NCBI RefSeq assembly: GCF_001428895.1
Contig: NZ_LMJA01000022.1
Location: 207,915 to 271,914 of the forward strand
Direction: 5' to 3'
Length of the DNA stretch: 64,000 nucleotides
From: Mycobacterium sp. Root265
Lineage (GTDB): Bacteria; Actinomycetota; Actinomycetes; Mycobacteriales; Mycobacteriaceae
Shown: positions 5,708 to 35,270 of the stretch, in pieces
How positions within the stretch are numbered: position 1 is the stretch's first letter
Layout: every line of letters begins with the position of its first letter
Translations under genes and position numbers: made by a program
The notes under the pieces: model-generated
The model's input: the letters and a program-made list of their open reading frames with translations, nothing else
Told to the model about the DNA's origin: nothing
Databases searched by the model: none

Positions 5708-6901
5708 ATGAACGACAAGCGAGCGCTTCGGGTGGCGATCGTCGGAGCCGGTATCGGCGGGTTGACCGCCGCCATCGCACTGCGTGCCCACGGGGTCGAC
5801 GCGCACGTGTATGAGAAAGCCTCCGAACTCAAAGCCTTGGGCGCCGGAGTGTCCATCGCCCCCAACGGATCCCGCGTGCTCACCCGCCTCGGGCTCGGCG
5901 AACAGCTGAGGGCGATCGCCGGCCCGCTCTCGCACTACGTGTTCCGTACCTGGCAGGGCGAGCCGATCGCCGGAGAACCGTCGACCTTGTCGTTCGGCGA
6001 CCCTGCGCACACCTGGTTTCTGCACCGCGCCGAATTCCAGCGCGTGCTCTGCGACGCTCTGCCCACCGGAGCGATCACCTTCGGGCACCCTGTGGTCAGC
6101 GCCACCGAGGATCCCGACGGCGTCACCGTCCGGTTCGCCGACGGCAGCACCGTCGAGACCGACCTGCTGGTTGCCGCCGACGGTATCCACTCCGCGCTCC
6201 AAGGCGTGGTCAGCGCGCCGGCGAAGCCGGTGAGCGAGGGAATCATGGCTTACCGCGGGCTCATTCCCGCCGATCGACTCTCCGGGATAGCCCCCGTGGG
6301 CGATCTCGACGTCAGCGGGATGTGGATGGGTCCCGAGCGCAGCTTCCTGGTTTATCCGGTGTCGGCGGGCCGTCTGCTCAACGTGGTGGCCTTCGTGCCC
6401 ACCGACCTGGAGGTGCTGGAGTCGTGGACTGCGCCAGGTGATGTGCGCGAGCTGGCGGCCGCCTACCGGGGGTGGGATCAACCCGTCCTGGACATCATCG
6501 GCGCGATGGATGAGACGTTCCGCTGGGGGATCTATGACCGCGCCCCGCTTTCGCAGTGGTCGAGCGAACGCGTCACCCTGCTGGGCGATTCCGCTCACGC
6601 AGTCGTGCCCCATCTCGGTCAGGGCGCCAACCAGGCCATCGAGGACGCCATGACCCTTGCGGTCCTACTGGACGACTGCGGCCCCGCCGACGTGCCGTCC
6701 CGGTTGCGGATCTACCAGGAGCTCCGGATGATCCGCACCCGGCAGGTCCGCGACGGTGCGCGGGAGGCCGGACGCACCTACCGGTCGAATGATCTGGCCG
6801 CATCAGCGCGGGCCGCGAAGATCGACGCCATCTTCGCCGGTATCGCGGTGAACACCTACGACGCCGAGCAGGTCGCCCGGCAGGCGCTGGCCGCGGTGTA
6901 G
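5708..6901 (+). CDS. FAD-dependent monooxygenase (class A, salicylate hydroxylase-like)
   Basis: 397 residues. The FAD ADP-binding motif GAGIGGLTAAIALRAHG lies at residues 13-29. A central DG motif (VAADGIHSAL) and the C-terminal GD motif LLGDSAHAVVPHLGQGANQAIEDA contact the flavin ribityl and pyrophosphate. These are marks of NAD(P)H-dependent flavoprotein hydroxylases that act on aromatic or similar rings. It has a strong GGGAGG ribosome site and is divergent from a TetR repressor with operators in the promoter, so it is probably inducible. The substrate is unknown. Confidence 0.88.
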   Translation: MNDKRALRVAIVGAGIGGLTAAIALRAHGVDAHVYEKASELKALGAGVSIAPNGSRVLTRLGLGEQLRAIAGPLSHYVFRTWQGEPIAGEPSTLSFGDPAHTWFLHRAEFQRVLCDALPTGAITFGHPVVSATEDPDGVTVRFADGSTVETDLLVAADGIHSALQGVVSAPAKPVSEGIMAYRGLIPADRLSGIAPVGDLDVSGMWMGPERSFLVYPVSAGRLLNVVAFVPTDLEVLESWTAPGDVRELAAAYRGWDQPVLDIIGAMDETFRWGIYDRAPLSQWSSERVTLLGDSAHAVVPHLGQGANQAIEDAMTLAVLLDDCGPADVPSRLRIYQELRMIRTRQVRDGAREAGRTYRSNDLAASARAAKIDAIFAGIAVNTYDAEQVARQALAAV

Positions 6902-6908
6902 CGGACGG

Positions 6909-7739
6909 TCAGCCGCGATACTGCGCGACGGCAGCCGCGTACTCGTCGAGCAGCCGCAGCGATTCATCGCGCGGCACGCTGGGCAGGATCAGCGCCACCT
7001 GCCCGAACCCGAGTTTCTCGACAGCGCTCCAGTACTGGGCGTCCACCGGCGTCCCGAACATCGCCAACGGAACGTCGTGTCCCGCGCCCTCTTTCAGCTG
7101 CCCGATGCGCCGGGCCAGTTGATCCTCCGGGAACGGGTTGGAGATCCATCCCGCGCCGTGTCGGATGATCCGTTTCACCGTGGCATCGGAGTTGCCGCCG
7201 ATGTAGATGGGCGGGTGCGGCTTCTGCACCGGCTTCGGCCGCAGATGAGTCGGATCGAAATCGACGTATTTGCCGTGATATTCGGCCGGCTCACCGGTCC
7301 AGAGCGCCTTGATGGCCTCGATGCGCTCGTCCAGCAGCGCGCCGCGAGTTTTCGGATCGGTGCCGTGGTTGCGCAATTCTTCGAGGTTCCAGCCGGCGCC
7401 GACACCGAAGACGAACCGGCCACCGGAGATGAGGTCGATGCTGGCCGCCTCTTTCGCGGTGATGATCGGGTCACGCTGAATGAGCAGGGCGATCCCGGTG
7501 AACAGTTCGATCTTGGATGTGACGGCGGCCGCGGCGGCCAGCGTGACGAAGGGGTCGAGCGTCTTGTAGTACTGATCGGGCAGCTCGCCACCACCCGGAT
7601 ACGCGGACTCCCGGCTGGCCGGGATGTTGGTGTGTTCGGCGATGACCAGCGAGTGGAAATCCCGCTCTTCGATGGCAGTTGCCAGCGATACCGGGTCGAT
7701 GCCGTCGTCGGTCACAAAGGTGGAGATGCCGAACTTCAT
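6909..7739 (-). CDS. LLM class F420-dependent oxidoreductase
   Basis: 276 residues from ATG 7739, which has a GAGAGG site upstream; a longer frame to 7820 is not supported. The luciferase-like monooxygenase fold is shown by MKFGISTF, LVIAEHTNIP, the GGRFVFGVGAGWN element and the RPKPVQKPHPPIYIGG strand. Mycobacterial members of this type use coenzyme F420 for hydride transfer. It lies downstream of the pca operon on the same strand with a 52-base gap, so it may be co-transcribed; its substrate is not evident. Confidence 0.87.
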   Translation of the reverse strand: MKFGISTFVTDDGIDPVSLATAIEERDFHSLVIAEHTNIPASRESAYPGGGELPDQYYKTLDPFVTLAAAAAVTSKIELFTGIALLIQRDPIITAKEAASIDLISGGRFVFGVGAGWNLEELRNHGTDPKTRGALLDERIEAIKALWTGEPAEYHGKYVDFDPTHLRPKPVQKPHPPIYIGGNSDATVKRIIRHGAGWISNPFPEDQLARRIGQLKEGAGHDVPLAMFGTPVDAQYWSAVEKLGFGQVALILPSVPRDESLRLLDEYAAAVAQYRG

Positions 7740-7791
7740 GGTGTGCCTCTCGTAGCCAGTCTTCCCCGGGACAACCCTGGCCGGGATCGCG

Positions 7792-8430
7792 CTATTCCAC
7801 TGCGTCGATGACCGGGGCACCGGTCCGCGCGACCACCTCGTCGAGATCGACCTCGTCGGCGAGTTCGACCACCGCGAACCCGGTGCCGGTCACGTCGAAG
7901 ACCCCCAACTCGGTGATGACCCGGCTGACCACCGCTTTACCGGTCAACGGCAGGTCGCAGTGCAGAACCAGTTTGGCGGCACCGGATTTGGCGGTGTGGT
8001 CCATCAGCACGATGACGCGTTCGGCGCCGCTGACCAGATCCATTGCGCCACCCATGCCCTTGACCATGGATCCCGGCACCATCCAGTTGGCCAGGTCGCC
8101 GTTGGCGGCGACCTGCATGCCACCGAGCACCGCGACGTCGACGTGTCCGCCGCGGATCATCGCGAAGCTGGTGGCCGAGTCGAAGTAGGACGCGCCGTCC
8201 ACCACCGAGACGGTCTGCTTGCCGGCGTTGACCAGATCCGGGTCCACCTCGTCGTCATAGGGGAACGGGCCGACGCCCAGGATGCCATTCTCGGCGTGCA
8301 GCGTGACATCGGAGCCCTCGGGCAGGTGGTCGGGGATCAGTGTGGGCAGACCGATCCCGAGGTTGACGTAGTCACCGTCGCGCAGTTCCAGCGCCGCGCG
8401 GGCGGCCATCTGGTCACGGGTCCAGCTCAT
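7792..8430 (-). CDS. pcaJ: 3-oxoacid (3-oxoadipate) CoA-transferase subunit B
   Basis: 212 residues, normal for the beta subunit. The catalytic glutamate that forms the CoA thioester lies in [11 protein letters not shown]. The [18 protein letters not shown] and [13 protein letters not shown] stretches are typical of SCOT/PcaJ proteins. The ATG overlaps the stop of subunit A by four bases. With pcaD and pcaF in the same operon, the likely reaction is transfer of CoA from succinyl-CoA to 3-oxoadipate. An acetoacetate transferase (scoB) would look similar. Confidence 0.85.
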
Positions 8431-9218
8431 GATGAAACCTCCTGCTGATCGGTCGGCCGTGGGCGGGTGGTGCGTTTCTCGATCTCCTTGCGGGAGGCCT
8501 GCTCCGGGGTGAGTTCGACGACGCGCTGGACGAAGATTCCTGCCAGGTGGATCTCGTCGGGATGCAGCTCGCCGACCTCGACCACCCGTTCGGCCTCGAC
8601 CACGGTGAGGCGCCCCGCCATGGCGGCGGGAGGATTGAAATTCCTTGCCGCCGCGTGGAACACGCAGTTTCCGGCCTTGTCGGCGACCGCCGCGCGGATC
8701 AGCGCGTAGTCGGTGACGATCGACTCTTCGAGCAGCATCTGCCGCCCGCCGAAGGTGCGCACCTCCTTCGGGGGCGAGGCCAGTGCCACGCTTCCGTCCG
8801 GGTGATAGCGCCAGGGCAGGCCGCCGTCGGCCACCAGGGTGCCGACCCCGGTCGGGGTGAAGAATGCGCCGATTCCGCTGCCGCCGGCGCGCATCCGCTC
8901 GGCGAGGGTGCCCTGCGGGGTCAGCTCGACGGTCAGTTCACCGGACAGGTACTGCCGCGCGAACTCCTTGTTCTCCCCGACGTAGGAGGCGATCACGCGG
9001 GTGATGCGGTGCGCCTCCAACAGCAGGCCCAGGCCGGCACCGTCGACGCCGCAGTTGTTGCTGACGATCGTCAGGTCACCGGCCCCCTGGGAGAGCAGCG
9101 CGTCGATCAGGAACCAGGGGATGCCGGCCAACCCGAATCCGCCGACCGCCAGGCTGGCGCCGTGTGGGATGTCGGCCACCGCTTCTGCGGGGGATGCCAC
9201 GAGCTTGTTCAATGTCAT
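8427..9218 (-). CDS. pcaI: 3-oxoacid (3-oxoadipate) CoA-transferase subunit A
   Basis: 263 residues. The N-terminal glycine-rich [15 protein letters not shown] motif binds CoA, and TIVSNNCG and [21 protein letters not shown] are family landmarks. The C-terminal 20 residues are charged and look disordered. It partners the subunit encoded immediately downstream (ATGA overlap) and overlaps the pcaD stop at 9215-9218. The whole pca operon is translationally coupled. Confidence 0.85.
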
Positions 9219-9985
9219 TGCTGCTCCAGGTGTTCGATGAGCGCGGGGGTGATGGTGGCGGGCTGCTCGGCGTTGGCCAGATGGGCGGCCTGCGGCACGG
9301 TCAGCAGGCGCGACCCGGGGATCCGGGCGACGATCTCCTCCAGCTTGGCCGGCGGCGTCGCGGGATCGTCCGCGCCGGCGATGGCGAGGGTGGGCGCGGT
9401 GATGGTGGAAAGCTGTTCGCGCAGATCGAGTGCGGCGATGGCTTCACAGCACGCCGCGTAGCCTTCGGCCGACGTGTCCGCGACCATCTGCTCGTGTGCG
9501 CTGCGCACGTCGGGGCGCGCGTCCAGGTAGGCCGGGGTGAACCAGCGCTGCACGACGGCGGCGGCCACCGCCGCGCTGCCCTGCGCGCGGACGATCGCGG
9601 CGCGGTCGGTCCACGCCGACGCCGGGGGCAGCTGCGCCCCGGTGCACAGCAGCGCAAGCCGTTGCACCCGTTCCGGATTGCGGATCGCCACCCGCATGAC
9701 GGTCATCCCGCCGAGCGACAAGCCGACCAGATGGGCCTTGGCGATGCCGAGCCGATCGAGCAGCGCCACGAGATCATCGGCCAGATCGTCGATCAGGTAC
9801 GGGCCCGCGGGCACCGGCGATCCGCCGTGGCCGCGGGTGTCATAGCGCACCACCCGGAAGCGCTGCTCCAGTTCGGCGAGCTGGGCGTCCCACATGTGGT
9901 GGGTGGAGCCCAGCGAGTTGGACAACACGACCGCCGGGGCCTCGGCGCGTCCCGAGACGACGGCGTGTACGTCGATGGCGCTCAT
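9215..9985 (-). CDS. pcaD: 3-oxoadipate enol-lactonase (alpha/beta hydrolase)
   Basis: 256 residues from ATG 9985, which overlaps the thiolase stop (ATGA). The SNSLGSTHHMWD and RYDTRGHGGSPVPAGPY segments are characteristic of enol-lactonases. The nucleophile is the Ser of GLSLGG, the acid an Asp in GADDPATP and the base the His of PQAAHLAN. It hydrolyses 3-oxoadipate enol-lactone to 3-oxoadipate, the point where the catechol and protocatechuate branches meet. Confidence 0.85.
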   Translation of the reverse strand: MSAIDVHAVVSGRAEAPAVVLSNSLGSTHHMWDAQLAELEQRFRVVRYDTRGHGGSPVPAGPYLIDDLADDLVALLDRLGIAKAHLVGLSLGGMTVMRVAIRNPERVQRLALLCTGAQLPPASAWTDRAAIVRAQGSAAVAAAVVQRWFTPAYLDARPDVRSAHEQMVADTSAEGYAACCEAIAALDLREQLSTITAPTLAIAGADDPATPPAKLEEIVARIPGSRLLTVPQAAHLANAEQPATITPALIEHLEQQ

Positions 9986-11196
9986 CGGAGGGCCTCGAAA
10001 ACCGCTGCCAGGCCCTGTCCGCCACCGATGCACATGGTTTCGAGCACCGTTCGTGCGCCGCGGCGGCGTGCCTCGTGCGCGACGGTGGCCAGGATGCGCG
10101 CACCGGTCGCGCCGACCGGATGGCCCAACGAGATCCCGGATCCGTTCGGGTTCAGGCGATCATCGAGCGGATCGACCTTCCATTCGGCCAGCACCGCCAG
10201 CACCTGCGCGGCGAACGCCTCGTTGAGTTCGATCAAGTCGATCTCGTCGAGGGTGAGGCCCGCGCGCTGCAGCGCGGCGGCGGTCGCGGCCACCGGCCCG
10301 ATGCCCATGGTTTCCGGCCGGCAGCCCGTTACCGCCCATGACCGCAGCGCCAGCATCGGGGTGAGCCCGAGGCGCTCGGCTTCGGCGGCGGTGGTGACGA
10401 CACACAATGCCGCACCGTCATTCTGGCCGGACGCATTGCCGGCGGTGACGGTCGAGTCGGCGTCGATCTTGGTACGCACGGCGCGTAGTGCCGCCAGCTT
10501 CTCGACGCTGACGTCGGTGCGCGGGTGTTCGTCGCGGTCGACGATGACGTCGGGGCGGCCGCGCGTGCCGGTGATCGTCACCGGTACCAGTTCCTCGGCG
10601 AAACGCCCCTGCTCATGGGCGGCGATCGCCCGCTGATGCGAACGCACTGCCAGTTCGTCCTGCTCGGCGCGGCCGATGCCGTAGTGGCGGCGCAGGTTCT
10701 CCGCGGTCTCGATCATCCCGCCCGCGATCGGATGGTCGGCGCCACCGGCGGTTTCGCGGGCCCGGTCCAGCCGGTCCAGCAGCGCCACCCCGCCCTGGCG
10801 GACACCGGTGCGCAGACCCAGCGCGTAGTGCTCGACATTGGACATCGATTCCGCGCCACCGGCGACCACCACGCGCGCCGCGCCGGTGGCGACCTGACCG
10901 GCGGCGTAGAGCACGGCCTGCAGACCGGAGCCGCAGCGGCGGTCGATCTGCAGCCCCGGAACCCCGGTGCCGAGGCCGGCATCCAGTGCGGCGATGCGGC
11001 CGATGGCCGGGGCCTCCCCGCTCGGGTAGCCGTGCCCGAGGACGACATCGTCGACATCGCCTTCACCGAGGCCGGTCCGTTCGACGAGCGCGCGCAGGGT
11101 GAGGGTGGCCAGGTCGGCGGCCGTCAACGCCGACAGGGCACCGCCCATGCGTCCCACCGGGGTGCGCAGTGGATTGCAGATCACGATGTCGGTCAT
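9982..11196 (-). CDS. pcaF: Thiolase, probable 3-oxoadipyl-CoA thiolase
   Basis: 404 residues with all thiolase signatures: nucleophile Cys in DRRCGSGLQAV (about residue 88), ELNEAFA, the GHPVGATGAR loop, and the second Cys in TMCIGGGQG. It would cleave 3-oxoadipyl-CoA to succinyl-CoA and acetyl-CoA. It is the first gene of the pcaF-pcaD-pcaI-pcaJ operon and is divergent from a LysR regulator. By sequence alone it could be a general acetyl-CoA acetyltransferase; the operon context favours PcaF. Confidence 0.85.
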   Translation of the reverse strand: MTDIVICNPLRTPVGRMGGALSALTAADLATLTLRALVERTGLGEGDVDDVVLGHGYPSGEAPAIGRIAALDAGLGTGVPGLQIDRRCGSGLQAVLYAAGQVATGAARVVVAGGAESMSNVEHYALGLRTGVRQGGVALLDRLDRARETAGGADHPIAGGMIETAENLRRHYGIGRAEQDELAVRSHQRAIAAHEQGRFAEELVPVTITGTRGRPDVIVDRDEHPRTDVSVEKLAALRAVRTKIDADSTVTAGNASGQNDGAALCVVTTAAEAERLGLTPMLALRSWAVTGCRPETMGIGPVAATAAALQRAGLTLDEIDLIELNEAFAAQVLAVLAEWKVDPLDDRLNPNGSGISLGHPVGATGARILATVAHEARRRGARTVLETMCIGGGQGLAAVFEALR

Positions 11197-21968: not shown

Positions 21969-23849
21969 TCACGTCGCGTTCGGCCTGACTGCGATCTTGA
22001 AGATGAGGGTGTCCAGCGCACCGAAGGCGCCGTGTGCGCTGATGTACAGCCGTTTCGCGTCGTAACCCGCGACGTCCTTCATGGTCTCGGCACCGAAGCG
22101 AGCCTGCGTCTGGCCATCGATGACGGTGACATCGGCACCGAGCAGAGCGTGTCGGATGTGGCTGCGTTCGGCACCGGTTGCGGTCGCCACGAGGGCCCCG
22201 ATGGTGCGGTGCCCACCGGTGGTCGGGACCGCAGCGCACGCGATGCCGTGCTCGTCGAGGAAGCGGTTCGCTGAGTCGATGGTGACGTCGGCACCCATGA
22301 CGAGGCTGAGGTTGCCGAGATTGACGTCGATGTCCGTGTTGTCACCGGTGGTGAGTAGCGCGTCCGGGTTCGAGGAGATGCCGCCTGCGAGGGCTTTCCG
22401 GACCGCGGCACCGAATGCGCTGGTGTCGGGCTCCTCGGGGGATGGATCGGGCAGCATGATCCCGGGGTTGAGCAGCCCGGCAGCATCGAATGCCTTCTTG
22501 ATCGACCGTTGCGCCGAGATCTCCACCGGGGTGAAGCGCTTCGTCATGAACTGGATCTTCTCGGTGCCCACCCCGTGCTCGCCGGTGATGGTGCCGCCTA
22601 ATTGCAGTGCGGCATCGATGATTTCATTGTTCGCTGCTTCCAGCGCGGAAGCGGCCAGCGGATTGTCCCTGTCGAAGAACGTGGTGGGGTGCAGATCGCC
22701 GTCACCGGCATGGCCACACACCGCGATGAACAGCAGCCCGTCGGAATGGCGCGCGGCAGTGGCCTGGATGGCTTCCTGCATTTCGGGAATCCGATCGCGG
22801 GGCACAGTGACATCCCCGATGAAGAAACCCTTGCCGCTCTGCACCACCGAGTTGGGGGCGTTGAGTCGGCCGTACCACAGAGCGGCGCGGGCCTTTTCGT
22901 CCTCGGCGACCCGCACCTCGGTGGCCCGCTCGCGCAATACGCTCTCCACGATCGCCTGATCGTGGAGCACCTCGGCGGCTGTACCGTCGACGTCGATGAG
23001 CACGATGGAATCGGCGTCCAGTGGGTAGCCGGTGTCGTAGAACTGTTGCAGCCCGGCAATGCCCGCCCGGTCGAGCCATTCCACGGCGGCGGGTACCACA
23101 CCGCTGGCGATGACGGCGGCAATGGTGTCGGCGGCTTCCCGTGCGGACGCGAAGGCGCCCATCAAGCTGTGGGTCACCTCAGCGATCGGCCGCAACGCAA
23201 CGGTTGCTTCGGTGACGATGCCAAGCGTGCCTTCGGACCCGATGATGACGCCGAGCAGGTCTGGCCCTTCGTCGTCGGCGCTGAAGGTGGTCTCGGACCC
23301 GTCGGGTAGAACGACGTCGACAGACAGGATGTGGTTGTAGGTGACGCCGTACTTCAAAGCGTGCGGACCGCCCGCATTTTCGATGATGTTGCCGCCCACC
23401 GTAGCCAGGTGTGCCGAGACCGGGTCAGGCGAGAAGCACAATCCATGTGGGGCGAGCGCCGCCTGAAGATCCGAGTTGATCACGCCGGGTTCCACTCGGG
23501 CGGAACGACTCTCGGTGTCGATGTCAAGGATGTGATTCAGGCGGGACAGATCCAGCAGAACGCGGCCCGCCGTGGGCATCATTCCTCCCGAGCAGTTCGA
23601 TGCGCCTCCGCGCGGCACGATAGCAATACCGTGGTCTTTGGCAATCCGGACGATCGAGGCGATCTCGTCGCGATTATGCGGGCGAAGCATCAGTTCAGCG
23701 GTGGCACCGACTCCCCAGAAATCGTGTCCACTGTCAGTCAGGACGGTGGAGTCGGTGACGACCTCGGCAAGGCCCGCGACGGCCCCGGCGAACCCGTCCA
23801 TGCTCGTGCTCTTCACGGCGGCGGCAACGGGTGCGTCGTGTGCGGTCAT
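21969..23849 (-). CDS. GlcD-type FAD-linked 2-hydroxyacid oxidase with GlcE-like C-terminal extension
   Basis: 626 residues from ATG 23849 (AAGGAG upstream). Residues 1-470 form a normal glycolate oxidase GlcD/D-lactate dehydrogenase. The FAD site is PRGGASNCSGG (79-89), with VGGNIIENAGGPHALKYGVT (151-170) and GSEGTLGIVTE (204-214). The C-terminal domain has CGHAGDGDLHPT (378-389) and GEHGVGTEK (423-431). About 155 extra residues follow. Their end, ETMKDVAGYDAKRLYISAHG (588-607), matches the VMKNVAGYD signature of GlcE. It probably oxidises a 2-hydroxyacid to a 2-oxoacid for the decarboxylase encoded upstream, for example mandelate to benzoylformate (inference). Confidence 0.82.
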   Translation of the reverse strand: MTAHDAPVAAAVKSTSMDGFAGAVAGLAEVVTDSTVLTDSGHDFWGVGATAELMLRPHNRDEIASIVRIAKDHGIAIVPRGGASNCSGGMMPTAGRVLLDLSRLNHILDIDTESRSARVEPGVINSDLQAALAPHGLCFSPDPVSAHLATVGGNIIENAGGPHALKYGVTYNHILSVDVVLPDGSETTFSADDEGPDLLGVIIGSEGTLGIVTEATVALRPIAEVTHSLMGAFASAREAADTIAAVIASGVVPAAVEWLDRAGIAGLQQFYDTGYPLDADSIVLIDVDGTAAEVLHDQAIVESVLRERATEVRVAEDEKARAALWYGRLNAPNSVVQSGKGFFIGDVTVPRDRIPEMQEAIQATAARHSDGLLFIAVCGHAGDGDLHPTTFFDRDNPLAASALEAANNEIIDAALQLGGTITGEHGVGTEKIQFMTKRFTPVEISAQRSIKKAFDAAGLLNPGIMLPDPSPEEPDTSAFGAAVRKALAGGISSNPDALLTTGDNTDIDVNLGNLSLVMGADVTIDSANRFLDEHGIACAAVPTTGGHRTIGALVATATGAERSHIRHALLGADVTVIDGQTQARFGAETMKDVAGYDAKRLYISAHGAFGALDTLIFKIAVRPNAT

Positions 23850-23995
23850 GTCATCCACTCCTTGGGGATAGCGGGTGTTCGTTGTGTGAATTACTTTGCT
23901 GCGGAACGGGCTCGATGTCTCCCAGGCTGTCCCCCGCCGAGAGGTCACGCTAGCTGGGGGTTGGCGTAGGGGCGAGCTGCAACCTGCACGTCAGC

Positions 23996-24409
23996 TCAGT
24001 CGTGTCCGACGGCGCCCTGTGCACGTAACCACGCATCTTCTTCGCCCGGGGCGGGCAGTACACGTCCACCTTCGATGGCGAAATGCGCTGGGCTGTTCTG
24101 GATCACGACAAGGATGCGCTCCGCGGGGATGCCGGTGACTCGAGAGGCTGCCGCCGCTATCGCAGCCACCAGTTGGCTACTTTGGGCTTCGGGATGGCCG
24201 GTGCGGACCCAACCGTTGATCAACAGCGGTTGGGCGGGTTGGCCATTGGTGTACACGTCGTCGGGTGCCAGCTCATGGAACACGACATTGACGTAGGTGC
24301 CGGGAACGTGATTGATCATGGAATGGATCCTGGTCACTTCACCGGCCAGGCCGGCCTTGGTTTCGGCGCTCAGCGTCGCCTCGACCGTCGTGCACGTGTA
24401 GACCGGCAT
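23996..24409 (-). CDS. Tautomerase superfamily protein, cis-CaaD/Cg10062-like
   Basis: 137 residues, a fused double beta-alpha-beta unit. After Met removal the N-terminus is Pro1 (PVYTCTT), the catalytic base of the superfamily. A His falls at position 28 and an Arg at position 68, close to the His28/Arg70 pair of cis-3-chloroacrylic acid dehalogenase and Cg10062. The second arginine expected near 73 is not apparent. It starts four bases after the decarboxylase stop (gap 24410-24412). It may tautomerise or hydrate a 2-oxoacid intermediate. Confidence 0.8.
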   Translation of the reverse strand: MPVYTCTTVEATLSAETKAGLAGEVTRIHSMINHVPGTYVNVVFHELAPDDVYTNGQPAQPLLINGWVRTGHPEAQSSQLVAAIAAAASRVTGIPAERILVVIQNSPAHFAIEGGRVLPAPGEEDAWLRAQGAVGHD

Positions 24410-24412
24410 CGG

Positions 24413-26029
24413 TCAGCCCAGGAACGGGAGTTGCGGCTGCGTGGGCACCACGAGGACGGTCGGCCCGTCCGCCTCCAGGGCCGCCTTGAACTCGCGCGCC
24501 AGGCTCTCGGTGCCGTCCACGTTGACCGTTCGACAACCGAAACCGGTTGCCAGCGCCGCAATATCGAGCCCGGGTAAGTCCAGTCCGGGGACATTTGGTG
24601 TCTCTTCGAGAAGCGCAAAGGACTTCAGGACGCAGTATTCGCCGTTGCGCTGCACCACGAACACAATCGGAAGTTTGTGCTGCGCAGCCGTCCAGATGGC
24701 CTGGATCGAGTACTGGAACGAGCCATCACCGATCGAGGCGACGATGGTTCGCTGCACGCCGCGGGCGCGGTCGCCGAGCGCGATACCCACCGCTGCCGGC
24801 ACTCCCCAGCCGATCCCTCCACTGCCCGTGGCGAAGAAGCTACCGGTGCGCCTGGTGGGCCACCACTGGATGAGGTCCGCCAGCGTCGAGGTGGACTCCA
24901 TGACGACCGCTGCGTCCTCGGGTTTGATCGAGCTGAGCACCGCGTAGACATCGTTGGGCAGCAGAGGCGCGGACGCCACGGGGAGCTCGCCGCTGAAATC
25001 CCGGCTCAGCCCGGGAGGTGCCTTCCGGTCCGCCGGCACCTCGACGAGGTCCAACAGCTCGTCGAGGGCGATGCCCACATCGCCGACCAGGCTGTCGCCG
25101 ACCGGCGCCACCGCGGCAAGGTGCGGATCAACGGTGATCTGCAGTACCGCGGTTCCCTCCGGCACCCATTCGCCGGCGACGTAGGGGTAGTACCGGAACA
25201 CCTGCGCACCGATGGCGATGACCAGGTCGAAACCCTGCAATGCCTCGTTGACACCCGCGATCGTCAGGGGCAATGGCCCGGCGTACAGCGGGTGATCCTC
25301 GGGGAACGAACACCGGTCCGAGAGCCCACTGCCGCGCACCGACGCACGCAGTTTCTCGGCGAAGGCGATGCCGGCATCCCAGGCGCCGGCACGGTCCACC
25401 TCGGGTCCCAGAAGCAACAGCGGCCGCTCCGCGCGGCTGATCCGTGCACCGAACTCGCGCAGGCGCTCCCTGTCTGGCTGAACACGGTGGCTGACCGTTC
25501 TGACCACCGCCGGCCCCAGTGCCGGCTTGTTCCAGTCGTCGAGCGGAATGGACAGAAACACCGGACCCGCGGGCGGTTGCGTCGCCACCGCGTAAGCGCG
25601 CATGAATGCCGCAGGGACATCCTCGGCGCGTGCCGGTTCGTAGGCCCACTTGACCCATGGCTGCGGCATCACCGTCGGGTCGGGGTTGTTCAGATACGGA
25701 TCACACAAGGACATTTCGCGGGTCTGCTGACCTGCGGTCACGATCAGCGGCGTGTTGGCACGGTAGGCCGCGACCAGGCTGCCCATCGCATTGCCGGTGC
25801 CCGCGGCGGTGTGCAGGTTGACGAGCGCCGGCTTGCCGGTGGACTGGGCGAAGCCATCGGCCATCGCCAGCACGGATGCTTCCTGCAACCCCAGGATGTA
25901 GGTGAAGTCGTCGGGGAAGTTCTGCAAGAAGGTCTGTTCCGTGGACCCTGGATTGCCGAAAACCGTGGTCAGGCCGAGTGTGCGGAGCAGGTCATAGGTG
26001 ACGTGGTGGACGGACTTTGCTTCGGTCAT
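24413..26029 (-). CDS. mdlC: ThDP-dependent decarboxylase, benzoylformate decarboxylase-like
   Basis: 538 residues from ATG 26029. Sequence order and motifs follow benzoylformate decarboxylase: VFGNPGS (Ser29, equivalent to Ser26), LGLQEAS (Glu50, ThDP-activating), NLHTAAGTGNAMG (His73, equivalent to His70) and the ThDP/Mg motif GDGSFQYSIQAIW with the downstream NGEY. The second active-site His (His281 in the Pseudomonas enzyme, within VFRYHQY) is Tyr281 here (VFRYYPY). It should decarboxylate an aromatic 2-oxoacid to an aldehyde, but the substitution may change substrate or outcome. First gene of a three-gene operon, divergent from a LuxR-type ATPase regulator. Confidence 0.8.
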   Translation of the reverse strand: MTEAKSVHHVTYDLLRTLGLTTVFGNPGSTEQTFLQNFPDDFTYILGLQEASVLAMADGFAQSTGKPALVNLHTAAGTGNAMGSLVAAYRANTPLIVTAGQQTREMSLCDPYLNNPDPTVMPQPWVKWAYEPARAEDVPAAFMRAYAVATQPPAGPVFLSIPLDDWNKPALGPAVVRTVSHRVQPDRERLREFGARISRAERPLLLLGPEVDRAGAWDAGIAFAEKLRASVRGSGLSDRCSFPEDHPLYAGPLPLTIAGVNEALQGFDLVIAIGAQVFRYYPYVAGEWVPEGTAVLQITVDPHLAAVAPVGDSLVGDVGIALDELLDLVEVPADRKAPPGLSRDFSGELPVASAPLLPNDVYAVLSSIKPEDAAVVMESTSTLADLIQWWPTRRTGSFFATGSGGIGWGVPAAVGIALGDRARGVQRTIVASIGDGSFQYSIQAIWTAAQHKLPIVFVVQRNGEYCVLKSFALLEETPNVPGLDLPGLDIAALATGFGCRTVNVDGTESLAREFKAALEADGPTVLVVPTQPQLPFLG

Positions 26030-26097
26030 CGCTGGAAACCCTTCGTCAAATGAGTGCACTTCCGCTACGCCCATCACACACGGCGGCCAGGCGCGAC

Positions 26098-26119
26098 GAC
26101 CCCGTGGAAACCACGGGTC
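26098..26119. promoter_or_regulatory. Inverted repeat in the mdlC/LuxR divergent promoter region
   Basis: Arms GACCCCGTGG (26098-26107) and CCACGGGTC (26111-26119) pair except for one bulged C, with loop AAA. It is the clearest symmetry in the 173-base gap between the decarboxylase and the LuxR-type regulator, so it is either the regulator's binding site or a hairpin in a 5' leader. Confidence 0.45.
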
Positions 26120-26202
26120 GGCGGCAACCGGGGTTCGGGCCGGACCGGGAAGCTGCGGCACTTCAGGCCACCGCCGACCAGCTCTCGTGTCAAGATCACC
26201 GG

Positions 26203-28950
26203 ATGGGCGGCGATGCGGGCGGCAACGCGCTGGTGGGACGCCGCGACGAGCAACAGACGCTGGCCGAATTGCTGGCACGCGTCCGCGGCGGCGGCAGCGG
26301 CGTGCTCGTCCTTCGCGGCGAGGCCGGTATCGGCAAAACCGCATTGCTACGCGATGCCCGTGATCGCGCCTCCGATCTCCGGGTCATTGCGCTGAGCGGG
26401 GCGGAGTCGGAAATGGAGCTTGCGTACGCCGGCGTTCAGCAACTGTCAGCCCCATTGCTCGGCCATATCGATCGGTTACCCGGCCCGCAGAAGAACGCGC
26501 TCCGGGTGGCCCTCGGTTTGCGTGACGGCGCCGCGCCGGATCGCCTCCTGGTGGGGTTGGCCGTGCTGTCCCTGCTCGCCGACGCCGGGGCGGAGAAGCC
26601 CACCGTCTGCATCGTCGACGACGCGCAGTGGATTGACCGCGCTTCGCTGCAGGCGTTGGCGTTTGCCGGGCGCCGGCTCGTCGCCGACCCCGTGGCGATG
26701 ATCTTCGCGACCCGCGGATCGCAGGCCGATCCGGCGCTGGCGGCGCTGCCCGACCTACCCGTCGGCGGCCTCTCCGATGCCGATGCCCGTGCACTGCTCT
26801 CGACGATGATGCCGGCCCGGCTCGACGAAACCGTCCGCGACAATATCCTCGCCGAGGCCGGCGGAAATCCGCTGGCGTTGCTCGAATTGAACCGTGCATT
26901 GCCACCGGCTCAGCTCGCCGGCGGCTACGGACTGGTGGCGGCGAAGCCGCTGGCCACCCGCATCGAGCAGACGTACGGCCAACGGTTGCGCGAACTGCCG
27001 CCGCAGACGCGCATGCTCCTGCTGCTCGCGGCCGCCGAACCGACCGGCGAGCCGGCGTGGTTGTGGGCGGCCGCCGCGCGTCTCGGAATCGGTGCGGACG
27101 CTGGTGTTCCGGCCGAGCGCAGCGGGCTGGTGACCGTGAATACCAGATTGCGATTCCGGCACCCGCTGGTTCGATCGGCGATCTATCGCCACGCCACCCA
27201 GCCTGAGCGCAGGCAGGCTCACGCCGCATTGGCCGAGGTGATCTCCGGGCCGGTCGCGGACGAGCACCGCGCCTGGCACCGTGCCCACGCCACGGACGCA
27301 CCCGATGAAGCGATCGCGGTGGAACTGGTGGAGTCGGCCGAGCGCGCCCGCAAACGCGGTGGATCCGCCGCGGCCGCGGCGTTCCTCGCGTACGCCGTCG
27401 AACTGACGCCCGAACCGTTCACGCGGGGCGAACGCGCACTCATGGCCGCCCGCGCCAAGGTCGACGCGGCGGACCCTGCGGCGGCCACCACGCTGCTGGC
27501 ATCCGTTGCGCGCGCCGACAGCGAATTACTCGATGCCCAGGCGGATCTGCTGCGCGCCAAGATCACCTTCGCCACCAACCGCGGCCGCGACGCACCTCCG
27601 CTGCTCTTGGCGGCAGCGGAACGGCTACGGCCGTTCGATGTCGCGCTCGCACGCGAGACCTACCTCGAGGCACTGATGGCCGCCATGATCGTCGGCAGAC
27701 TGTTCCTCGGTGAGCACGGCTCGGCGGCGGCGATCGCCGCGTCCGCGATGCAGGCGCCGCCTGCCTCGGATCCCCCCACGGCAGTCGACCTGTTTCTGGA
27801 CGGTCTGGTTGTCCGGCTCACGCAGGGGTACACCGCGGCTGTTCCGTTGCTGCAGAGGGCCGTTCGGCAGTATCTGGCGGAAGAGGCGGCAGGCACGGCA
27901 GATCCGCGTTGGCACGACATCACCAACCGGGTTCTGCTCGATCTCTTCGATCAGGACACCTACGATGGGCTCAACGAACGGCAATCCGAGATGTTGCGCG
28001 CCACGGGCGAGTTGACCGTACTTCCGGCAGCCCTGACCACGTACGCAGGAGCATGCGTCACGTCAGGTGACTTCACTCGCGCAGCTGAACTACTTGCCCA
28101 GTCCGACGCGATCTCCGTGGCGACGGGGGCTCCGCCGCACCGGTCGATCCAGACGTATCTCGCGGCGTGTCGTGGGCAGGAGCAACAAGGCAGGCAACTG
28201 GCACGAGAGACCATTCAGGAAGCCACGGCGCGCGGTGAAGGCAGCGAGGTCACCGTCGTACTTTTCTCGGTGGCCGTTCTCCACAACGGACTCGCCCAGT
28301 ACCCGGAGGCATTCGCGGCGTGCCTGTCCGCCCTCGAATACGACGACGTGGGGATGTACGGCCACCTGCTCAACGAGATGGTCGAAGCTGCTGCCCGCTC
28401 CGGCAATACGAGCGCCGCCGAGGCAGCGGCTGCACAACTGTGGGACCGTGCCGACGCATCAGGTACGGCAACCGCACTGGGCTACGCAGCCCGCGCCAGG
28501 GCGCTACTGGGCTCAGGCATTGAAGCTGAGCGCGAGTATCGAACGGCAATAGCGGAATTAAAGCGAACTCCACTGAAGGTCCTCACCGCGCGCACTCGCC
28601 TGATCTTCGGCGAATGGCTGCGACGCGCGAACCGCCGGGCTGACGCCGTCACCGAATTGCGGGGCGCCTACCAAATGTTCGTCGAGATGGGGGCCGACGG
28701 CTTGGCCGAGAGGGCCCGCCGTGAGCTCCAGGCGGCCGGCGAATATCAACGAAACGATCTGGGCCACGGGTCCGTAGCGGCACTGACGACACAAGAGAGC
28801 TACATCGCCCGGCTCGCAGGTGACGGTTACACCAATTCCGAGATCGCCAGCCACCTGTTCATCAGCCCACGGACAGTGGAATGGCACCTGAGCAAGATCT
28901 TCGCCAAGCTCGGGGTGTCGTCACGCCGCGAGTTGAGACAGCGCGACTAG
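26203..28950 (+). CDS. Large ATP-binding LuxR-type (LAL) transcriptional regulator
   Basis: 915 residues from ATG 26203; the frame is open to 26017 but the region before 26203 looks non-coding. Walker A is GEAGIGKTAL near residue 40 and Walker B is VCIVDDAQWID about 100 residues later. A long helical TPR-like middle follows, and a C-terminal LuxR HTH (DGYTNSEIASHLFISPRTVEWHLSKIFAKLGVSSRREL). This is the LAL/MalT-like STAND architecture in which a ligand and ATP gate activation. It is divergent from the decarboxylase operon and is its obvious candidate activator. Confidence 0.88.
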   Translation: MGGDAGGNALVGRRDEQQTLAELLARVRGGGSGVLVLRGEAGIGKTALLRDARDRASDLRVIALSGAESEMELAYAGVQQLSAPLLGHIDRLPGPQKNALRVALGLRDGAAPDRLLVGLAVLSLLADAGAEKPTVCIVDDAQWIDRASLQALAFAGRRLVADPVAMIFATRGSQADPALAALPDLPVGGLSDADARALLSTMMPARLDETVRDNILAEAGGNPLALLELNRALPPAQLAGGYGLVAAKPLATRIEQTYGQRLRELPPQTRMLLLLAAAEPTGEPAWLWAAAARLGIGADAGVPAERSGLVTVNTRLRFRHPLVRSAIYRHATQPERRQAHAALAEVISGPVADEHRAWHRAHATDAPDEAIAVELVESAERARKRGGSAAAAAFLAYAVELTPEPFTRGERALMAARAKVDAADPAAATTLLASVARADSELLDAQADLLRAKITFATNRGRDAPPLLLAAAERLRPFDVALARETYLEALMAAMIVGRLFLGEHGSAAAIAASAMQAPPASDPPTAVDLFLDGLVVRLTQGYTAAVPLLQRAVRQYLAEEAAGTADPRWHDITNRVLLDLFDQDTYDGLNERQSEMLRATGELTVLPAALTTYAGACVTSGDFTRAAELLAQSDAISVATGAPPHRSIQTYLAACRGQEQQGRQLARETIQEATARGEGSEVTVVLFSVAVLHNGLAQYPEAFAACLSALEYDDVGMYGHLLNEMVEAAARSGNTSAAEAAAAQLWDRADASGTATALGYAARARALLGSGIEAEREYRTAIAELKRTPLKVLTARTRLIFGEWLRRANRRADAVTELRGAYQMFVEMGADGLAERARRELQAAGEYQRNDLGHGSVAALTTQESYIARLAGDGYTNSEIASHLFISPRTVEWHLSKIFAKLGVSSRRELRQRD

Positions 28951-31999: not shown

Positions 32000-34306
32000 C
32001 TATTCCCACACCACCTCATCGGGTGTTTTGTCCGGCCGCAGGCCCCGCCAACTGGGTTGCCGCAACCGGCCATCGGAGGTGCGCTCGCTGTAGCGCACCT
32101 CCCCCACCAATTCCGGGCGCACGAACGTGACCCCCTTGGCATCGGGTCCGGTCAGCCGCTTCACAAACGGTGATTCGTCGGTCTCCAGCGGCTTCAACGT
32201 CGCCCGCAGATCCTTGAGCATCTTCTCGGTGAACCCGGTCCCCACCCGGCCGGCGAACTGCAGGCCGTCGTCACCGGGAACCCCGACGACCAGCGCGCCG
32301 ATCCCGCTGGTGCGTCCGCCCTCTCCGGCGCGCCAGCCGCCGATCACGACTTCCTGTGTCCGCCAGAGCTTGTCCTTGATCCACGACTGCGAACGCCGCC
32401 CCGGCTGATAGGTGGAGTCCCGCTTCTTGGCCACCACTCCTTCGAACCCGTGCTCTCGCGCGTACACGAGAGCCTCAGCTCCGCTGCCTAGCAGCTGTTC
32501 GGGGACGATCAGTCCCCCGCCCTTGGCGAGCGCTTCCAGCAGTTTGCGCCGGTCGGAGTACTTGGCCCGCAACAGGGATCGCCCGTCGAGCTGCAAGATG
32601 TCGAACGCCCAGAACTCGACACGGGTGGACCGGGCGCGGTTCTGCATCTCACCAAAGCTCGGCACCCCCGAGGAGTCCAGTGCGACCACCTCGCCGTCGA
32701 GGATCACGTGATGGTCGGCCAGGTCGGCGGCGAGCGCCCGCAGTTGCGGATACTCTCCGGTCACGTCGCGGCCGCTGCGGGTGCGCAGCAGCAGATCCCC
32801 GTGATCGGCGTCGACCAGTAGCCGGTAGCCGTCCCACTTGCCCTCGAACGCCCAGACGATCGGCGTCAGCTTCTCCACCGATCCGTGGGTGGCCAGCATC
32901 GGCGCCAGATCCTGGGCATTCGCAACCGGCTGCTCCTTCATCCGGTGCGCCAGCCAGTTCTTACCACCGGTCTGGATCAACGCGTAGCGGCCCTTGATCT
33001 TCGAGCCGTGCAAGGTGACGATCACCTCGCCCTTTTTGCCGTCGACGCTCTCACCGTCCACGCCGGGATCGCGGAACTTCTCGGTCTCGTAGGTGCCGGA
33101 ATCCCACACGATGACCTCACCACCGCCGTACTCGCCCTTGGGGATCGAGCCCTCGAAGGTGGCGTACTCCAGCGGGTGATCCTCGGTGTGCACGGCAAGG
33201 TGATTCACCGATGTCTTCTCGGGCAGGTTCTTCGGGACCGCCCAGGAGACCAGCACCCCGTTGCGTTCCAGCCGGAAGTCGTAGTGCAGGCGGCGCGCGT
33301 GGTGCTCCTGGATGACGAAGGTGTCGTCGTTCCCGGTGGCCGGGGCCTTGCGCGGCACCGGTTCGGGCGTCTTACCCGCGTCCCGCATGCTGCGGTAAGT
33401 GGTGAGTTTGTCTGGCAGCGGCGCGCTTTCGTCAAGTCCTGCGAGCAGGTCACCGTCCCGCTCCACCCGCGCCAGCACCTCGTCGAAGCGCAGATGCCGA
33501 AGATCGGGGTCTCCGATCTCCTCCCAGGTCCGCGGCGCGGCGACGGTCGGCTCTGCCCGGCCGCGCATCGAATACGGCGCGATGGTGGTCTTGGCGGCGC
33601 TGTTCTGGCTCCAGTCCAGGAACACCTTCCCGGTGCGCAGACTCTTGGTCATTGTCGCGGTGACCTGCTTGGGCATGGCCTTCTCCAGCTGCACAGCGAT
33701 CCGCTTGGCGAGCACGGACGCGCCCTGCGAGCTCACCGGGTCGGCCAGCGGCACGTAGAGGTGCAGGCCCTTGCTGCCGCTGGTCAGCGGGTAGGCCGTC
33801 AGACCGATGTCCTCGACGTAGCCGCGGACCTCGTGAGCGACCTCGCACAGCTGCCGGAAGGTCACGTCCTCGCCGGGGTCGAGATCGAACACGATGCGCG
33901 TCGCCGGGCCGGGATGCCCCGCCGCTGCGTCATCACCCGCCCCGCTTCGCCCGCCCGTGAACCGCCACTGCGGGACGTGCACCTCCAGCGACGCCTGCTG
34001 GGCGATCCAGGCCAGCCCCTCGCGCGTATCGATGATCGGATAGGTCGTCGTCCCCGACCGATGCGTCACCGAGCCCCGCTGCAGCCAGTCCGGGGCGGAC
34101 GACGCCAGCTGCTTTTCGAAGAACTCCGGCTGCTCGACCCCGTTGGGCCAGCGTTTGCGGGTCACCGGACGCCCGGCGATATGCGGGACCATCGCGTCGG
34201 CGATCGCCACGTAGTAGTCGAACACCTCGGCCTTGGTGGTGCCGGTGGCGGGATAGAGCACCTTGTCGGGATTGGTCAATTTGACCCGGCCGTCGCGCTC
34301 CACCAC
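32000..34306 (-). CDS. ligD: Multifunctional NHEJ DNA ligase D
   Basis: 768 residues with the mycobacterial domain order: polymerase/primase (about 5-290, catalytic FDLDPGED), 3'-phosphoesterase (about 330-455, FVIQEHHARRLHYDFRLE), and ATP-dependent ligase (about 480-768, adenylation motif EGKWDGYR). It fills in, trims and seals DNA double-strand breaks with Ku. The start is GTG 34306 or 34303, only 31 bases from the divergent ku ATG. Confidence 0.95.
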   Translation of the reverse strand: MVERDGRVKLTNPDKVLYPATGTTKAEVFDYYVAIADAMVPHIAGRPVTRKRWPNGVEQPEFFEKQLASSAPDWLQRGSVTHRSGTTTYPIIDTREGLAWIAQQASLEVHVPQWRFTGGRSGAGDDAAAGHPGPATRIVFDLDPGEDVTFRQLCEVAHEVRGYVEDIGLTAYPLTSGSKGLHLYVPLADPVSSQGASVLAKRIAVQLEKAMPKQVTATMTKSLRTGKVFLDWSQNSAAKTTIAPYSMRGRAEPTVAAPRTWEEIGDPDLRHLRFDEVLARVERDGDLLAGLDESAPLPDKLTTYRSMRDAGKTPEPVPRKAPATGNDDTFVIQEHHARRLHYDFRLERNGVLVSWAVPKNLPEKTSVNHLAVHTEDHPLEYATFEGSIPKGEYGGGEVIVWDSGTYETEKFRDPGVDGESVDGKKGEVIVTLHGSKIKGRYALIQTGGKNWLAHRMKEQPVANAQDLAPMLATHGSVEKLTPIVWAFEGKWDGYRLLVDADHGDLLLRTRSGRDVTGEYPQLRALAADLADHHVILDGEVVALDSSGVPSFGEMQNRARSTRVEFWAFDILQLDGRSLLRAKYSDRRKLLEALAKGGGLIVPEQLLGSGAEALVYAREHGFEGVVAKKRDSTYQPGRRSQSWIKDKLWRTQEVVIGGWRAGEGGRTSGIGALVVGVPGDDGLQFAGRVGTGFTEKMLKDLRATLKPLETDESPFVKRLTGPDAKGVTFVRPELVGEVRYSERTSDGRLRQPSWRGLRPDKTPDEVVWE

Positions 34307-34337
34307 TCAAACGTAATACCCGCTGTTACCGTTGCCT

Positions 34338-35270
34338 ATGCGATCAATCTGGAAGGGCTCGGTCTCCTTCGGTCTGGTCAACGTGCCGGTCAAGGTCTAC
34401 AGCGCGACCGAGGACCACGACATCAAGTTCCATCAGGTGCACGCCAAGGACAACGGGCGCATCCGCTACAAGCGCACCTGCGAGGTCTGCGGCGAAGTGG
34501 TCGAGTACCGCGACATCGCCCGCGCCTACGACTCCGACGACGGCCAGACGGTGATCATCACCGATGAGGACATCGCCACGCTGCCCGAGGAACGCAGCCG
34601 CGAGATCGAGGTCGTCGAGTTCGTGCCGGCCGATCAGCTCGATCCGATGATGTATGACAAGAGCTATTTCCTGGAGCCGGACTCGAAGTCCACCAAATCC
34701 TATGTGCTGCTGGCCAAGACACTGGCCGAGACCGACCGGGTGGCGATCGTGCACTTCGCGCTGCGCAACAAGACGCGGCTGGCGGCGCTACGGGTCAAGG
34801 ACTTCAGCAAGCGCGACGTCATGGTGATCCACACGCTGCTGTGGCCCGACGAGATTCGTGACCCGGACTTCCCGTCGCTGGACAAGGACGTCGACATCAA
34901 GCCCGCCGAGCTGAAGATGGCCGGGCAGGTGGTCGAATCGATGACCGACGATTTCAAGCCCGACCAGTTCCGCGACGACTACCAGGAACAGCTGCATGAG
35001 CTGGTGCAGGCGAAACTGGAAGGCGGCGAGGCGTTCACCGTCGAGGAGCAGCCCACCGATCTGGACGAGTCCACCGAGGATGTGTCGGACCTGCTGGCCA
35101 AACTGGAGGCCAGCGTGAAGGCCCGCGGGTCCGGTTCGGCCGCCAAGGACGAACCCAAGAAGTCCGAGCCCAAGAAAGCTGCGGCCAAGAAGGCGCCGGC
35201 CAAAAAGGCCGCTGCCGAGAAAGCCCCGGCGAAAAAGGCGCCCGCGAAGAAGGCCGCCGCCAAGAAGTAG
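34338..35270 (+). CDS. ku: NHEJ DNA end-binding protein Ku
   Basis: 310 residues from ATG 34338; a TTG two codons earlier is unlikely. The core (about 1-255) is nearly collinear with what I recall of M. tuberculosis Ku: MRSIWKGSVSFGLVNVPVKVYSAT at the start, then FHQVHAKDNGRIRYKR and LLWPDEIRDPDFP. The extra C-terminal tail is a Lys/Ala/Pro repeat of KKAPAKKA type (from about 35150), absent in M. tuberculosis but known in M. smegmatis-like species, where it aids DNA binding. Divergent partner of ligD. Confidence 0.95.
   Translation: MRSIWKGSVSFGLVNVPVKVYSATEDHDIKFHQVHAKDNGRIRYKRTCEVCGEVVEYRDIARAYDSDDGQTVIITDEDIATLPEERSREIEVVEFVPADQLDPMMYDKSYFLEPDSKSTKSYVLLAKTLAETDRVAIVHFALRNKTRLAALRVKDFSKRDVMVIHTLLWPDEIRDPDFPSLDKDVDIKPAELKMAGQVVESMTDDFKPDQFRDDYQEQLHELVQAKLEGGEAFTVEEQPTDLDESTEDVSDLLAKLEASVKARGSGSAAKDEPKKSEPKKAAAKKAPAKKAAAEKAPAKKAPAKKAAAKK

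What the first reader, a model, noticed from the sequence alone, without database searches (positions are those of the whole stretch)
21969..28950. Mandelate-like catabolic module: ThDP decarboxylase, tautomerase, flavin oxidase and a LAL regulator
A benzoylformate decarboxylase-like enzyme, a cis-CaaD-like tautomerase and a GlcD-type 2-hydroxyacid oxidase lie on one strand, divergent from a 915-residue LuxR-type ATPase. The chemistry fits: hydroxyacid to 2-oxoacid (oxidase), tautomerisation or hydration, then decarboxylation to an aldehyde. I do not know this combination as a described pathway. The tautomerase points to an enolisable or unsaturated 2-oxoacid, such as a phenylpyruvate-type compound, rather than plain mandelate.
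Basis: partly seen in the sequence, partly recalled or inferred. Interest (0 to 1): 0.75.

Follow-up and report, generated by a model that had tools for sequence, protein, structure and literature searches.

The report
Mycobacterial oxidase–tautomerase–decarboxylase regulon
Many environmental mycobacteria carry a small gene cassette, apparently switched by its own regulator, that most likely turns a 2-hydroxy acid into an aldehyde; its substrate is unknown and may well not be mandelate, although its decarboxylase is named after the mandelate pathway.

Summary
A ThDP decarboxylase (BFD), a tautomerase (TAUT) and a GlcD-type D-2-hydroxyacid dehydrogenase (FADOX) lie on one strand, divergent from a 915-residue LAL regulator, in a Mycobacterium (GTDB sense).

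A 17-bp palindrome between LAL and BFD (26101-26117) is the only perfect copy in the 6.67-Mb genome. Its relaxed form precedes BFD at 34 of 36 loci with LAL and 0 of 47 without, and precedes FADOX at 5 of 5 loci where FADOX is on the opposite strand: probably one LAL regulon.

FADOX orthologs also sit beside a 42-44% identical BFD in other mycobacteria, supporting oxidase-decarboxylase coupling. BFD keeps S26, E47 and H70, but H281 is Tyr in 83 of 83 and A460 is Val/Ile in 82, so benzoylformate is an uncertain substrate. TAUT keeps P1, H28, R70 and E114 but not R73 or Y103: not a cis-CaaD.

Verdict: a real, conserved variant of a mandelate-type pathway; substrate and tautomerase step are inferred.

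The parts
24413..26029 (-). BFD: ThDP-dependent 2-oxo acid decarboxylase, benzoylformate decarboxylase family, 538 aa, first gene of the operon
   Evidence: NCBIfam PRK07092 635.5 bits, cutoff 493; 75% identical to PDB 4q9d; S26, E47, H70 kept, H281->Y, A460->V
23996..24409 (-). TAUT: 137-aa tautomerase of the cis-CaaD-like group with N-terminal proline after Met
   Evidence: Pfam Tautomerase_3 and Tautomerase; nearest solved sequence 5uif Ps01740; AlphaFold model pLDDT 85.6 matches Cg10062, cis-CaaD and 5uif
21969..23849 (-). FADOX: FAD-dependent D-2-hydroxyacid dehydrogenase, GlcD type, 626 aa, with a C-terminal half FAD_binding_4 / GlcE-like domain
   Evidence: Pfam FAD_binding_4 and FAD-oxidase_C; nearest folds are D-lactate dehydrogenases (model pLDDT 79); 17 orthologs 62-85% identical
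26203..28950 (+). LAL: LuxR-family ATP-binding regulator, 915 aa, divergent from BFD
   Evidence: Pfam AAA_16 and GerE; start codon context conserved among relatives; HTH conserved within its clade and recognisable in others
26101..26117 (.). Predicted LAL operator: perfect 7-3-7 inverted repeat CCCGTGG-AAA-CCACGGG
   Evidence: Only perfect copy in 6.67 Mb; (tied) best-conserved 17-column stretch of the spacer in 26 loci, 1.66 bits against 0.76 elsewhere; relaxed form at 34 of 36 LAL+ and 0 of 47 LAL- loci
26073..26081 (-). Conserved GTGTGTGAT element between operator and BFD start, role unknown
   Evidence: Spacer alignment of 26 loci

Best explanation
A LAL-controlled catabolic cassette. FADOX oxidises a D-2-hydroxy acid to the 2-oxo acid. 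BFD decarboxylates the 2-oxo acid to the aldehyde one carbon shorter. TAUT serves the decarboxylase step by interconverting enol and keto forms (or moving or hydrating a double bond) of an enolisable 2-oxo acid or of its product. LAL binds the palindrome between itself and BFD, and a second copy in front of FADOX where FADOX is a separate unit, so the genes respond to one inducer. Supported by sequence comparison: conservation, a shared operator, oxidase-decarboxylase partnership, core catalytic residues. Inferred: LAL binding, D stereochemistry, the TAUT reaction, an enolisable substrate that is not an arylglyoxylate.
For: BFD-TAUT within 6 kb at 58 of 83 loci, 55 directly adjacent on one strand. 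FADOX in 14 of 16 genomes with BFD-TAUT against 3 of 82 others, Fisher p 2e-12, uncorrected for kinship. In those 3 genomes (G001, G031, G051) FADOX lies beside a divergent 42-44% BFD at 4 places. Operator evidence. FADOX folds like D-lactate dehydrogenases solved with several D-2-hydroxy or 2-oxo acids. A relative (L198, also fetched as L073) has an FMN_dh gene (family of L-2-hydroxyacid dehydrogenases) between QOR and TAUT on the same strand, which could serve the other stereoisomer. A460I lets P. putida BFD use pyruvate (PMC9063327, passage); here 460 is V or I in 82 of 83.
Against: No biochemical or expression data. 25 of 83 loci have no TAUT within 6 kb at the threshold used (one of these, L181, has a diverged match), and 52 of 83 no FADOX within 4 kb; in 4 genomes FADOX lies elsewhere without the operator, and 2 of 16 BFD-TAUT genomes lack FADOX, so the genes are not obligate partners. 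No position in BFD separates TAUT+ from TAUT- loci cleanly (best 80%). H281 can be replaced with modest loss (PMC6028569, passages), so Y281 does not exclude benzoylformate. The 34 of 36 operator count is partly circular because the relaxed pattern was drawn from those loci.
Confidence: 0.55

Rival explanations
1. Plain D-mandelate pathway: FADOX makes benzoylformate, BFD makes benzaldehyde, and TAUT is incidental or scavenges side products.
For: BFD passes the benzoylformate decarboxylase equivalog cutoff; S26, E47, H70 kept; a lower 3-oxoadipate pathway cluster lies at 7.8-11.2 kb and an aldehyde dehydrogenase at 0.8-2.2 kb of the same window, 11-25 kb away.
Against: H281->Y in 83 of 83 and A460->V/I in 82 of 83. 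Benzoylformate cannot enolise (established chemistry), yet TAUT is directly beside BFD at 55 of 83 loci. No mandelate racemase or aldehyde dehydrogenase among the cassette and its immediate neighbours; a racemase-family gene was seen beside a different, 50% identical BFD (L117).
Confidence: 0.2
2. Dicarbonyl route: the 2-oxo acid is oxaloacetate-like (strongly enolised) and BFD makes malonate semialdehyde or an analogue; TAUT handles the dicarbonyl acid or its product, and malonate decarboxylase or an FAH-family enzyme follows in some species.
For: In Mycobacterium sp. Root135 (L058/L191) an operator-like site, one mismatch, lies about 120 bp before mdcA. An FAH-family gene lies within about 3.1 kb downstream of FADOX or TAUT on the same strand at 5 of the mapped loci (L035, L036, L184, L187, L193). 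cis-CaaD makes malonate semialdehyde (PMC10947199, passage).
Against: mdcA occurs in 5 of 98 sampled genomes, only 1 of the 16 with BFD-TAUT, and not in the window's genome at E 1e-80. The two mdc links may be one transferred cluster (mdcA 91% identical).
Confidence: 0.15
3. Glyoxylate-carboligase analogue: FADOX oxidises glycolate, the ThDP enzyme joins two glyoxylates, and TAUT isomerises tartronate semialdehyde to hydroxypyruvate.
For: GlcD and GlcE similarity of FADOX; tautomerase chemistry would fit the enediol step (inference).
Against: Glyoxylate carboligase model only 111 bits against cutoff 791, benzoylformate decarboxylase 635.5 against 493; E47 kept in 83 of 83, whereas the carboligase lacks this Glu (recalled).
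Confidence: 0.05

Closest known systems
Mandelate pathway of Pseudomonas putida (mandelate dehydrogenase + benzoylformate decarboxylase MdlC)
   Same: 2-hydroxyacid oxidised to 2-oxoacid, then ThDP decarboxylation by an MdlC-family enzyme
   Different: GlcD-type FAD enzyme instead of the FMN enzyme MdlB (recalled), a tautomerase, no racemase or aldehyde dehydrogenase in the cassette, LAL regulator, H281 and A460 replaced
Putative benzoylformate decarboxylase of M. smegmatis (only the paper's title seen, in a reference list; that PDB 4q9d is this protein is my recollection)
   Same: 4q9d is the nearest solved sequence to BFD (75%); a genome with a 95% copy of 4q9d (G1081, L161) also has TAUT beside it
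   Different: No FADOX, LAL or operator found at that locus
cis-CaaD / Cg10062 / Ps01740 (Linker 1) tautomerases
   Same: Fold, length, Pro1, His28, Arg70, Glu114 equivalents
   Different: Arg73 replaced by His (58 of 58), Tyr103 by Val or Ile (58 of 58); linked to a ThDP decarboxylase
D-lactate / D-2-hydroxyglutarate dehydrogenases (GlcD type)
   Same: Sequence and fold of about the first 470 residues
   Different: Extra C-terminal stretch of about 137 aa, half FAD_binding_4 / GlcE-like (alone it stays just under the Pfam cutoff, 24.6 against 26.4)
LAL regulators of Streptomyces (PMC3282765, title and start of abstract in a search listing)
   Same: Large ATP-binding LuxR-family regulators
   Different: Here tied to a catabolic-looking cassette with a candidate palindromic operator

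Membership tests
Benzoylformate decarboxylase (MdlC) | Curated family score | tested here: met
   PRK07092 635.5 bits, cutoff 493
Benzoylformate decarboxylase (MdlC) | S26, E47 and H70 | tested here: met
   83 of 83 orthologs
Benzoylformate decarboxylase (MdlC) | H281 and A460 as in P. putida | tested here: not met
   Y281 in 83 of 83; V or I at 460 in 82 of 83, one gap
Benzoylformate decarboxylase (MdlC) | Decarboxylates benzoylformate | not testable with these tools
   No assay; the M. smegmatis paper was not found in the library
Mandelate pathway operon | Mandelate racemase and benzaldehyde dehydrogenase with the decarboxylase | tested here: not met
   Neither among the cassette or its nearest neighbours (MFS transporter, beta-lactamase-fold protein, TetR, P450); an aldehyde dehydrogenase of unassigned substrate lies about 20 kb away
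cis-CaaD dehalogenase | Pro1, His28, Arg70, Glu114 | tested here: met
   Pro 57 of 58 (one gap), His 58, Arg 58, Glu 57 of 58 (one Asp)
cis-CaaD dehalogenase | Arg73 and Tyr103 | tested here: not met
   His in 58 of 58 at the Arg73 place; Val 48, Ile 10 of 58 at the Tyr103 place, placed by the alignment to Cg10062; residue list from passages of PMC5818174
Glycolate oxidase GlcD | Curated family score | tested here: not met
   TIGR00387 426.9 bits, cutoff 567.9
FAD-dependent D-2-hydroxyacid dehydrogenase (FAD_binding_4 + FAD-oxidase_C) | Both Pfam domains above cutoff, and fold | tested here: met
LAL regulator | N-terminal AAA ATPase and C-terminal LuxR HTH in a large protein | tested here: met
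   AAA_16 75.0 bits, GerE 52.9 bits, 915 aa
LAL regulator | Binds DNA at its target promoter | not testable with these tools
   Palindrome predicted from conservation only
Glyoxylate carboligase | Curated family score | tested here: not met
   PRK11269 111 bits, cutoff 791

The most novel reading that the evidence does not exclude
A new catabolic regulon for strongly enolised 2-oxo acids (oxaloacetate-like or 2,4-dioxo acids): D-2-hydroxy acid to dicarbonyl acid by FADOX, tautomerisation by a new tautomerase subgroup (His in place of Arg73), and ThDP decarboxylation to a malonate-semialdehyde-type product, with malonate decarboxylase or FAH enzymes added in some lineages, all under one LAL operator.
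Probability: 0.15. Interest if true: 0.7.

Novelty: new variant of a known kind. Interest (0 to 1): 0.5.

Why it matters
It offers a reason why mycobacterial proteins named benzoylformate decarboxylase may be misnamed: most of their genes sit with a tautomerase and none was seen in a mandelate operon. It gives a testable partner (TAUT) and an inducer screen (operator reporter) for a clade of uncertain function, a candidate operator for a LAL regulator, a family called poorly studied in PMC3282765, and a natural pairing of a tautomerase with a ThDP decarboxylase.

Tried and rejected
Fusion as proof of linkage: the second BFD-TAUT copy in the window's genome (L044:9213-11282) reads as one open frame, but AGGAG and an ATG precede TAUT, so Pro1 can still be N-terminal; not counted as a fusion.

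Functional split between TAUT+ and TAUT- decarboxylases: no diagnostic residue. Independent-pair tests on the BFD tree had too few pairs to decide.

Malonate decarboxylase as a general partner: rejected, 5 of 98 genomes, 1 of the 16 with BFD-TAUT.

BFD-TAUT pairing outside Mycobacteriales: of 12 plasmid records with a tautomerase match I looked at 3 (30-32% identical); none has an annotated ThDP enzyme within 4 kb. Of 45 plasmid records with a BFD match I looked at the best 2 (51%); neither has an annotated tautomerase within 5 kb. PLSDB gene tables are incomplete. In 396 sampled genomes of the phylum, 10 had a tautomerase match at E 1e-8 or better, 5 of them outside the genus, whose neighbourhoods I did not inspect. 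In 401 genomes of the family, 10 had one at E 1e-30 or better, 9 in the window's own genus.

Operators where FADOX lies alone (L231-L234) or beside the divergent BFD (L235-L238): none found in those stretches.

Literature: ten searches listed no paper that I recognised as describing this cassette; the library lacks most subscription papers, so absence from print is not claimed.

Full report
WHAT IS THERE. On the minus strand, in transcription order, lie BFD (24413-26029), TAUT (23996-24409) and FADOX (21969-23849); LAL (26203-28950) points the other way. The genome is 6.67 Mb in 30 contigs. Of 33 named loci found with TAUT, those at 64% identity or more (25) are Mycobacterium/Mycolicibacterium/Mycolicibacter, one Gordonia, one Nocardia and one actinobacterial MAG; the other 8, at 29-46%, include three from Bradyrhizobium and two other proteobacteria-type names. 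Family searches confirm every gene. BFD is nearest to PDB 4q9d, TAUT to 5uif Ps01740, FADOX to D-lactate dehydrogenase structures.

CONSERVATION. In 98 genomes of the genus, 32 had a tautomerase match and 16 of these a close TAUT (57% identity or more, the window's genome included); each of the 17 close copies (the window's genome has two) has BFD directly upstream. A wider survey found BFD orthologs in 77 of 397 genomes, 81 places. I mapped the neighbourhoods of all 81 plus two loci chosen because they have TAUT (L219, L220), 83 in all. TAUT lies within 6 kb in 58 of 83 (56 of the 81), FADOX within 4 kb in 31 (all with TAUT, 30 with LAL), a quinone-reductase-like MDR gene (QOR) in 21, LAL in 36. 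On a quick BFD tree (long outgroup branches, so the root is unsure) all 27 rows of the window's clade have TAUT, 24 have FADOX and 26 have LAL; over the whole tree FADOX changes state at least 5 times, TAUT 11 (L181 counted as present), LAL 7, QOR 14. So BFD-TAUT is the core and FADOX an add-on kept in one clade. Nine of the 83 BFD genes lie within 4.5 kb of the end of the fetched stretch, so some absences may be false.

OXIDASE AND DECARBOXYLASE BELONG TOGETHER. FADOX orthologs occur in 17 of 98 genomes: 14 of the 16 with BFD-TAUT (not G033, G073) and 3 of the other 82 (Fisher p 2e-12, not corrected for kinship). In those three genomes (G001, G031, G051) FADOX sits at 4 places beside another BFD, 42-44% identical; a fifth piece (G051:C212) lies at a contig end with no BFD in view. 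In L236 (G001) the neighbours are a PucR-type regulator, two alpha/beta hydrolases and a P450. In G031 FADOX appears broken into pieces. In G011, G027, G039 and G081 FADOX lies elsewhere in the genome, away from BFD-TAUT. A relative (L198, also L073) has an FMN_dh gene on the same strand between QOR and TAUT.

ONE REGULON. The LAL-BFD spacer is poorly conserved except for a palindrome, a GTGTGTGAT element and the stretches at the two gene starts. The palindrome ties for the best-conserved 17-column stretch (1.66 bits per column, 0.76 elsewhere, 26 loci). In the window it is perfect and the only perfect copy in the genome (a control, the pattern read backwards, had more matches at up to two mismatches, 196 against 81, so weak matches mean nothing). 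A relaxed form drawn from three LAL clades occurs before BFD at 34 of 36 loci with LAL and at 0 of 47 without. The exceptions are a second BFD in L189 and L211, where LAL is not divergent from BFD. In the window's own genome the relaxed form with up to one mismatch has 24 matches, 2 others of them exact; I did not study these. The 34 of 36 is partly circular because the pattern came from these loci. Not circular: the 0 of 47; a copy before FADOX at 5 of 5 loci where FADOX is on the other strand from BFD (L037, L039, L170, L172, L183, three of them close kin; one mismatch in four of the five); and only 7 further places in 83 stretches, 1.44 Mb, one of them before a partial BFD beside a LAL (L118) and one before mdcA in L191. 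The C-terminal HTH of LAL is well conserved in the window's clade and recognisable in the others.

CATALYTIC RESIDUES. BFD keeps S26, E47 and H70 in 83 of 83; H281 is Tyr in 83, L109 is Tyr in 83, A460 is Val (41) or Ile (41) with one gap. Passages in PMC6028569 say His281 of P. putida BFD can be replaced by Phe with a 5-fold loss of kcat, and calculations there give it a role in substrate binding only. A passage in PMC9063327 says A460I lets that enzyme use pyruvate. So this should be an active decarboxylase whose preference for aryl glyoxylates is doubtful. TAUT keeps Pro1, His28, Arg70 and Glu114; Arg73 is His in 58 of 58 and Tyr103 is Val or Ile in 58 of 58 (residue list from passages of PMC5818174). 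Three tautomerases not linked to BFD in other mycobacteria keep Arg at the Arg73 place (L025, L028, L077).

MECHANISM. Best reading: D-2-hydroxy acid to 2-oxo acid (FADOX), keto/enol or double-bond adjustment (TAUT), decarboxylation to aldehyde (BFD), induced through LAL. Benzoylformate has no enolisable hydrogen (established chemistry), so a kept tautomerase argues for another acid. Accessory genes in some lineages, an alpha/beta hydrolase with a signal-like N-terminus, an FAH-family enzyme and malonate decarboxylase, suggest esters and dicarbonyl acids, but each is limited to a few loci.

NOVELTY. The chemistry is a variant of the mandelate route; this set of genes, the tautomerase subgroup and the LAL operator did not turn up in ten literature searches of an incomplete library. 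I call it a new variant of a known kind.

Noticed in passing
L044:9213-11282 (window genome, contig C8): A second BFD-TAUT pair, 74% and 66% identical, in one open frame without a stop between the genes, without LAL, FADOX or operator in the 19-kb stretch; AGGAG and an ATG precede TAUT.
   Followed up: partly
window 21972-22382: FADOX carries a C-terminal half FAD_binding_4 / GlcE-like stretch (about 137 aa), present in the aligned orthologs; role unknown.
   Followed up: partly
L235, L236, L237, L238: Another operon type, annotated in L236: PucR regulator, alpha/beta hydrolase, 43% BFD, FADOX, second hydrolase, P450; FADOX broken in L237 and cut by the contig end in L238.
   Followed up: partly
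L118:7624-9312: Operator-like site and a partial BFD beside a LAL and a QOR in G009, which also has the full cassette about 30 kb away.
   Followed up: no
L191:1713-1730: Operator-like site about 120 bp before the malonate decarboxylase operon; in Gordonia (L064) mdcABCDE follows BFD-TAUT-hydrolase directly.
   Followed up: partly
window 774-11196: Aldehyde dehydrogenase, iron alcohol dehydrogenase and a 3-oxoadipate-type lower pathway (enol-lactonase 9215-9985, CoA transferase subunits 7792-9218, thiolase 9982-11196).
   Followed up: partly
window 32000-35270: DNA ligase D (NHEJ) and Ku genes; the ligase family recurs near the cassette (cluster 5, 14 of the 54 stretches clustered, some of them the same locus fetched twice).
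   Followed up: no
window 26073-26081: Conserved GTGTGTGAT element in the LAL-BFD spacer.
   Followed up: no
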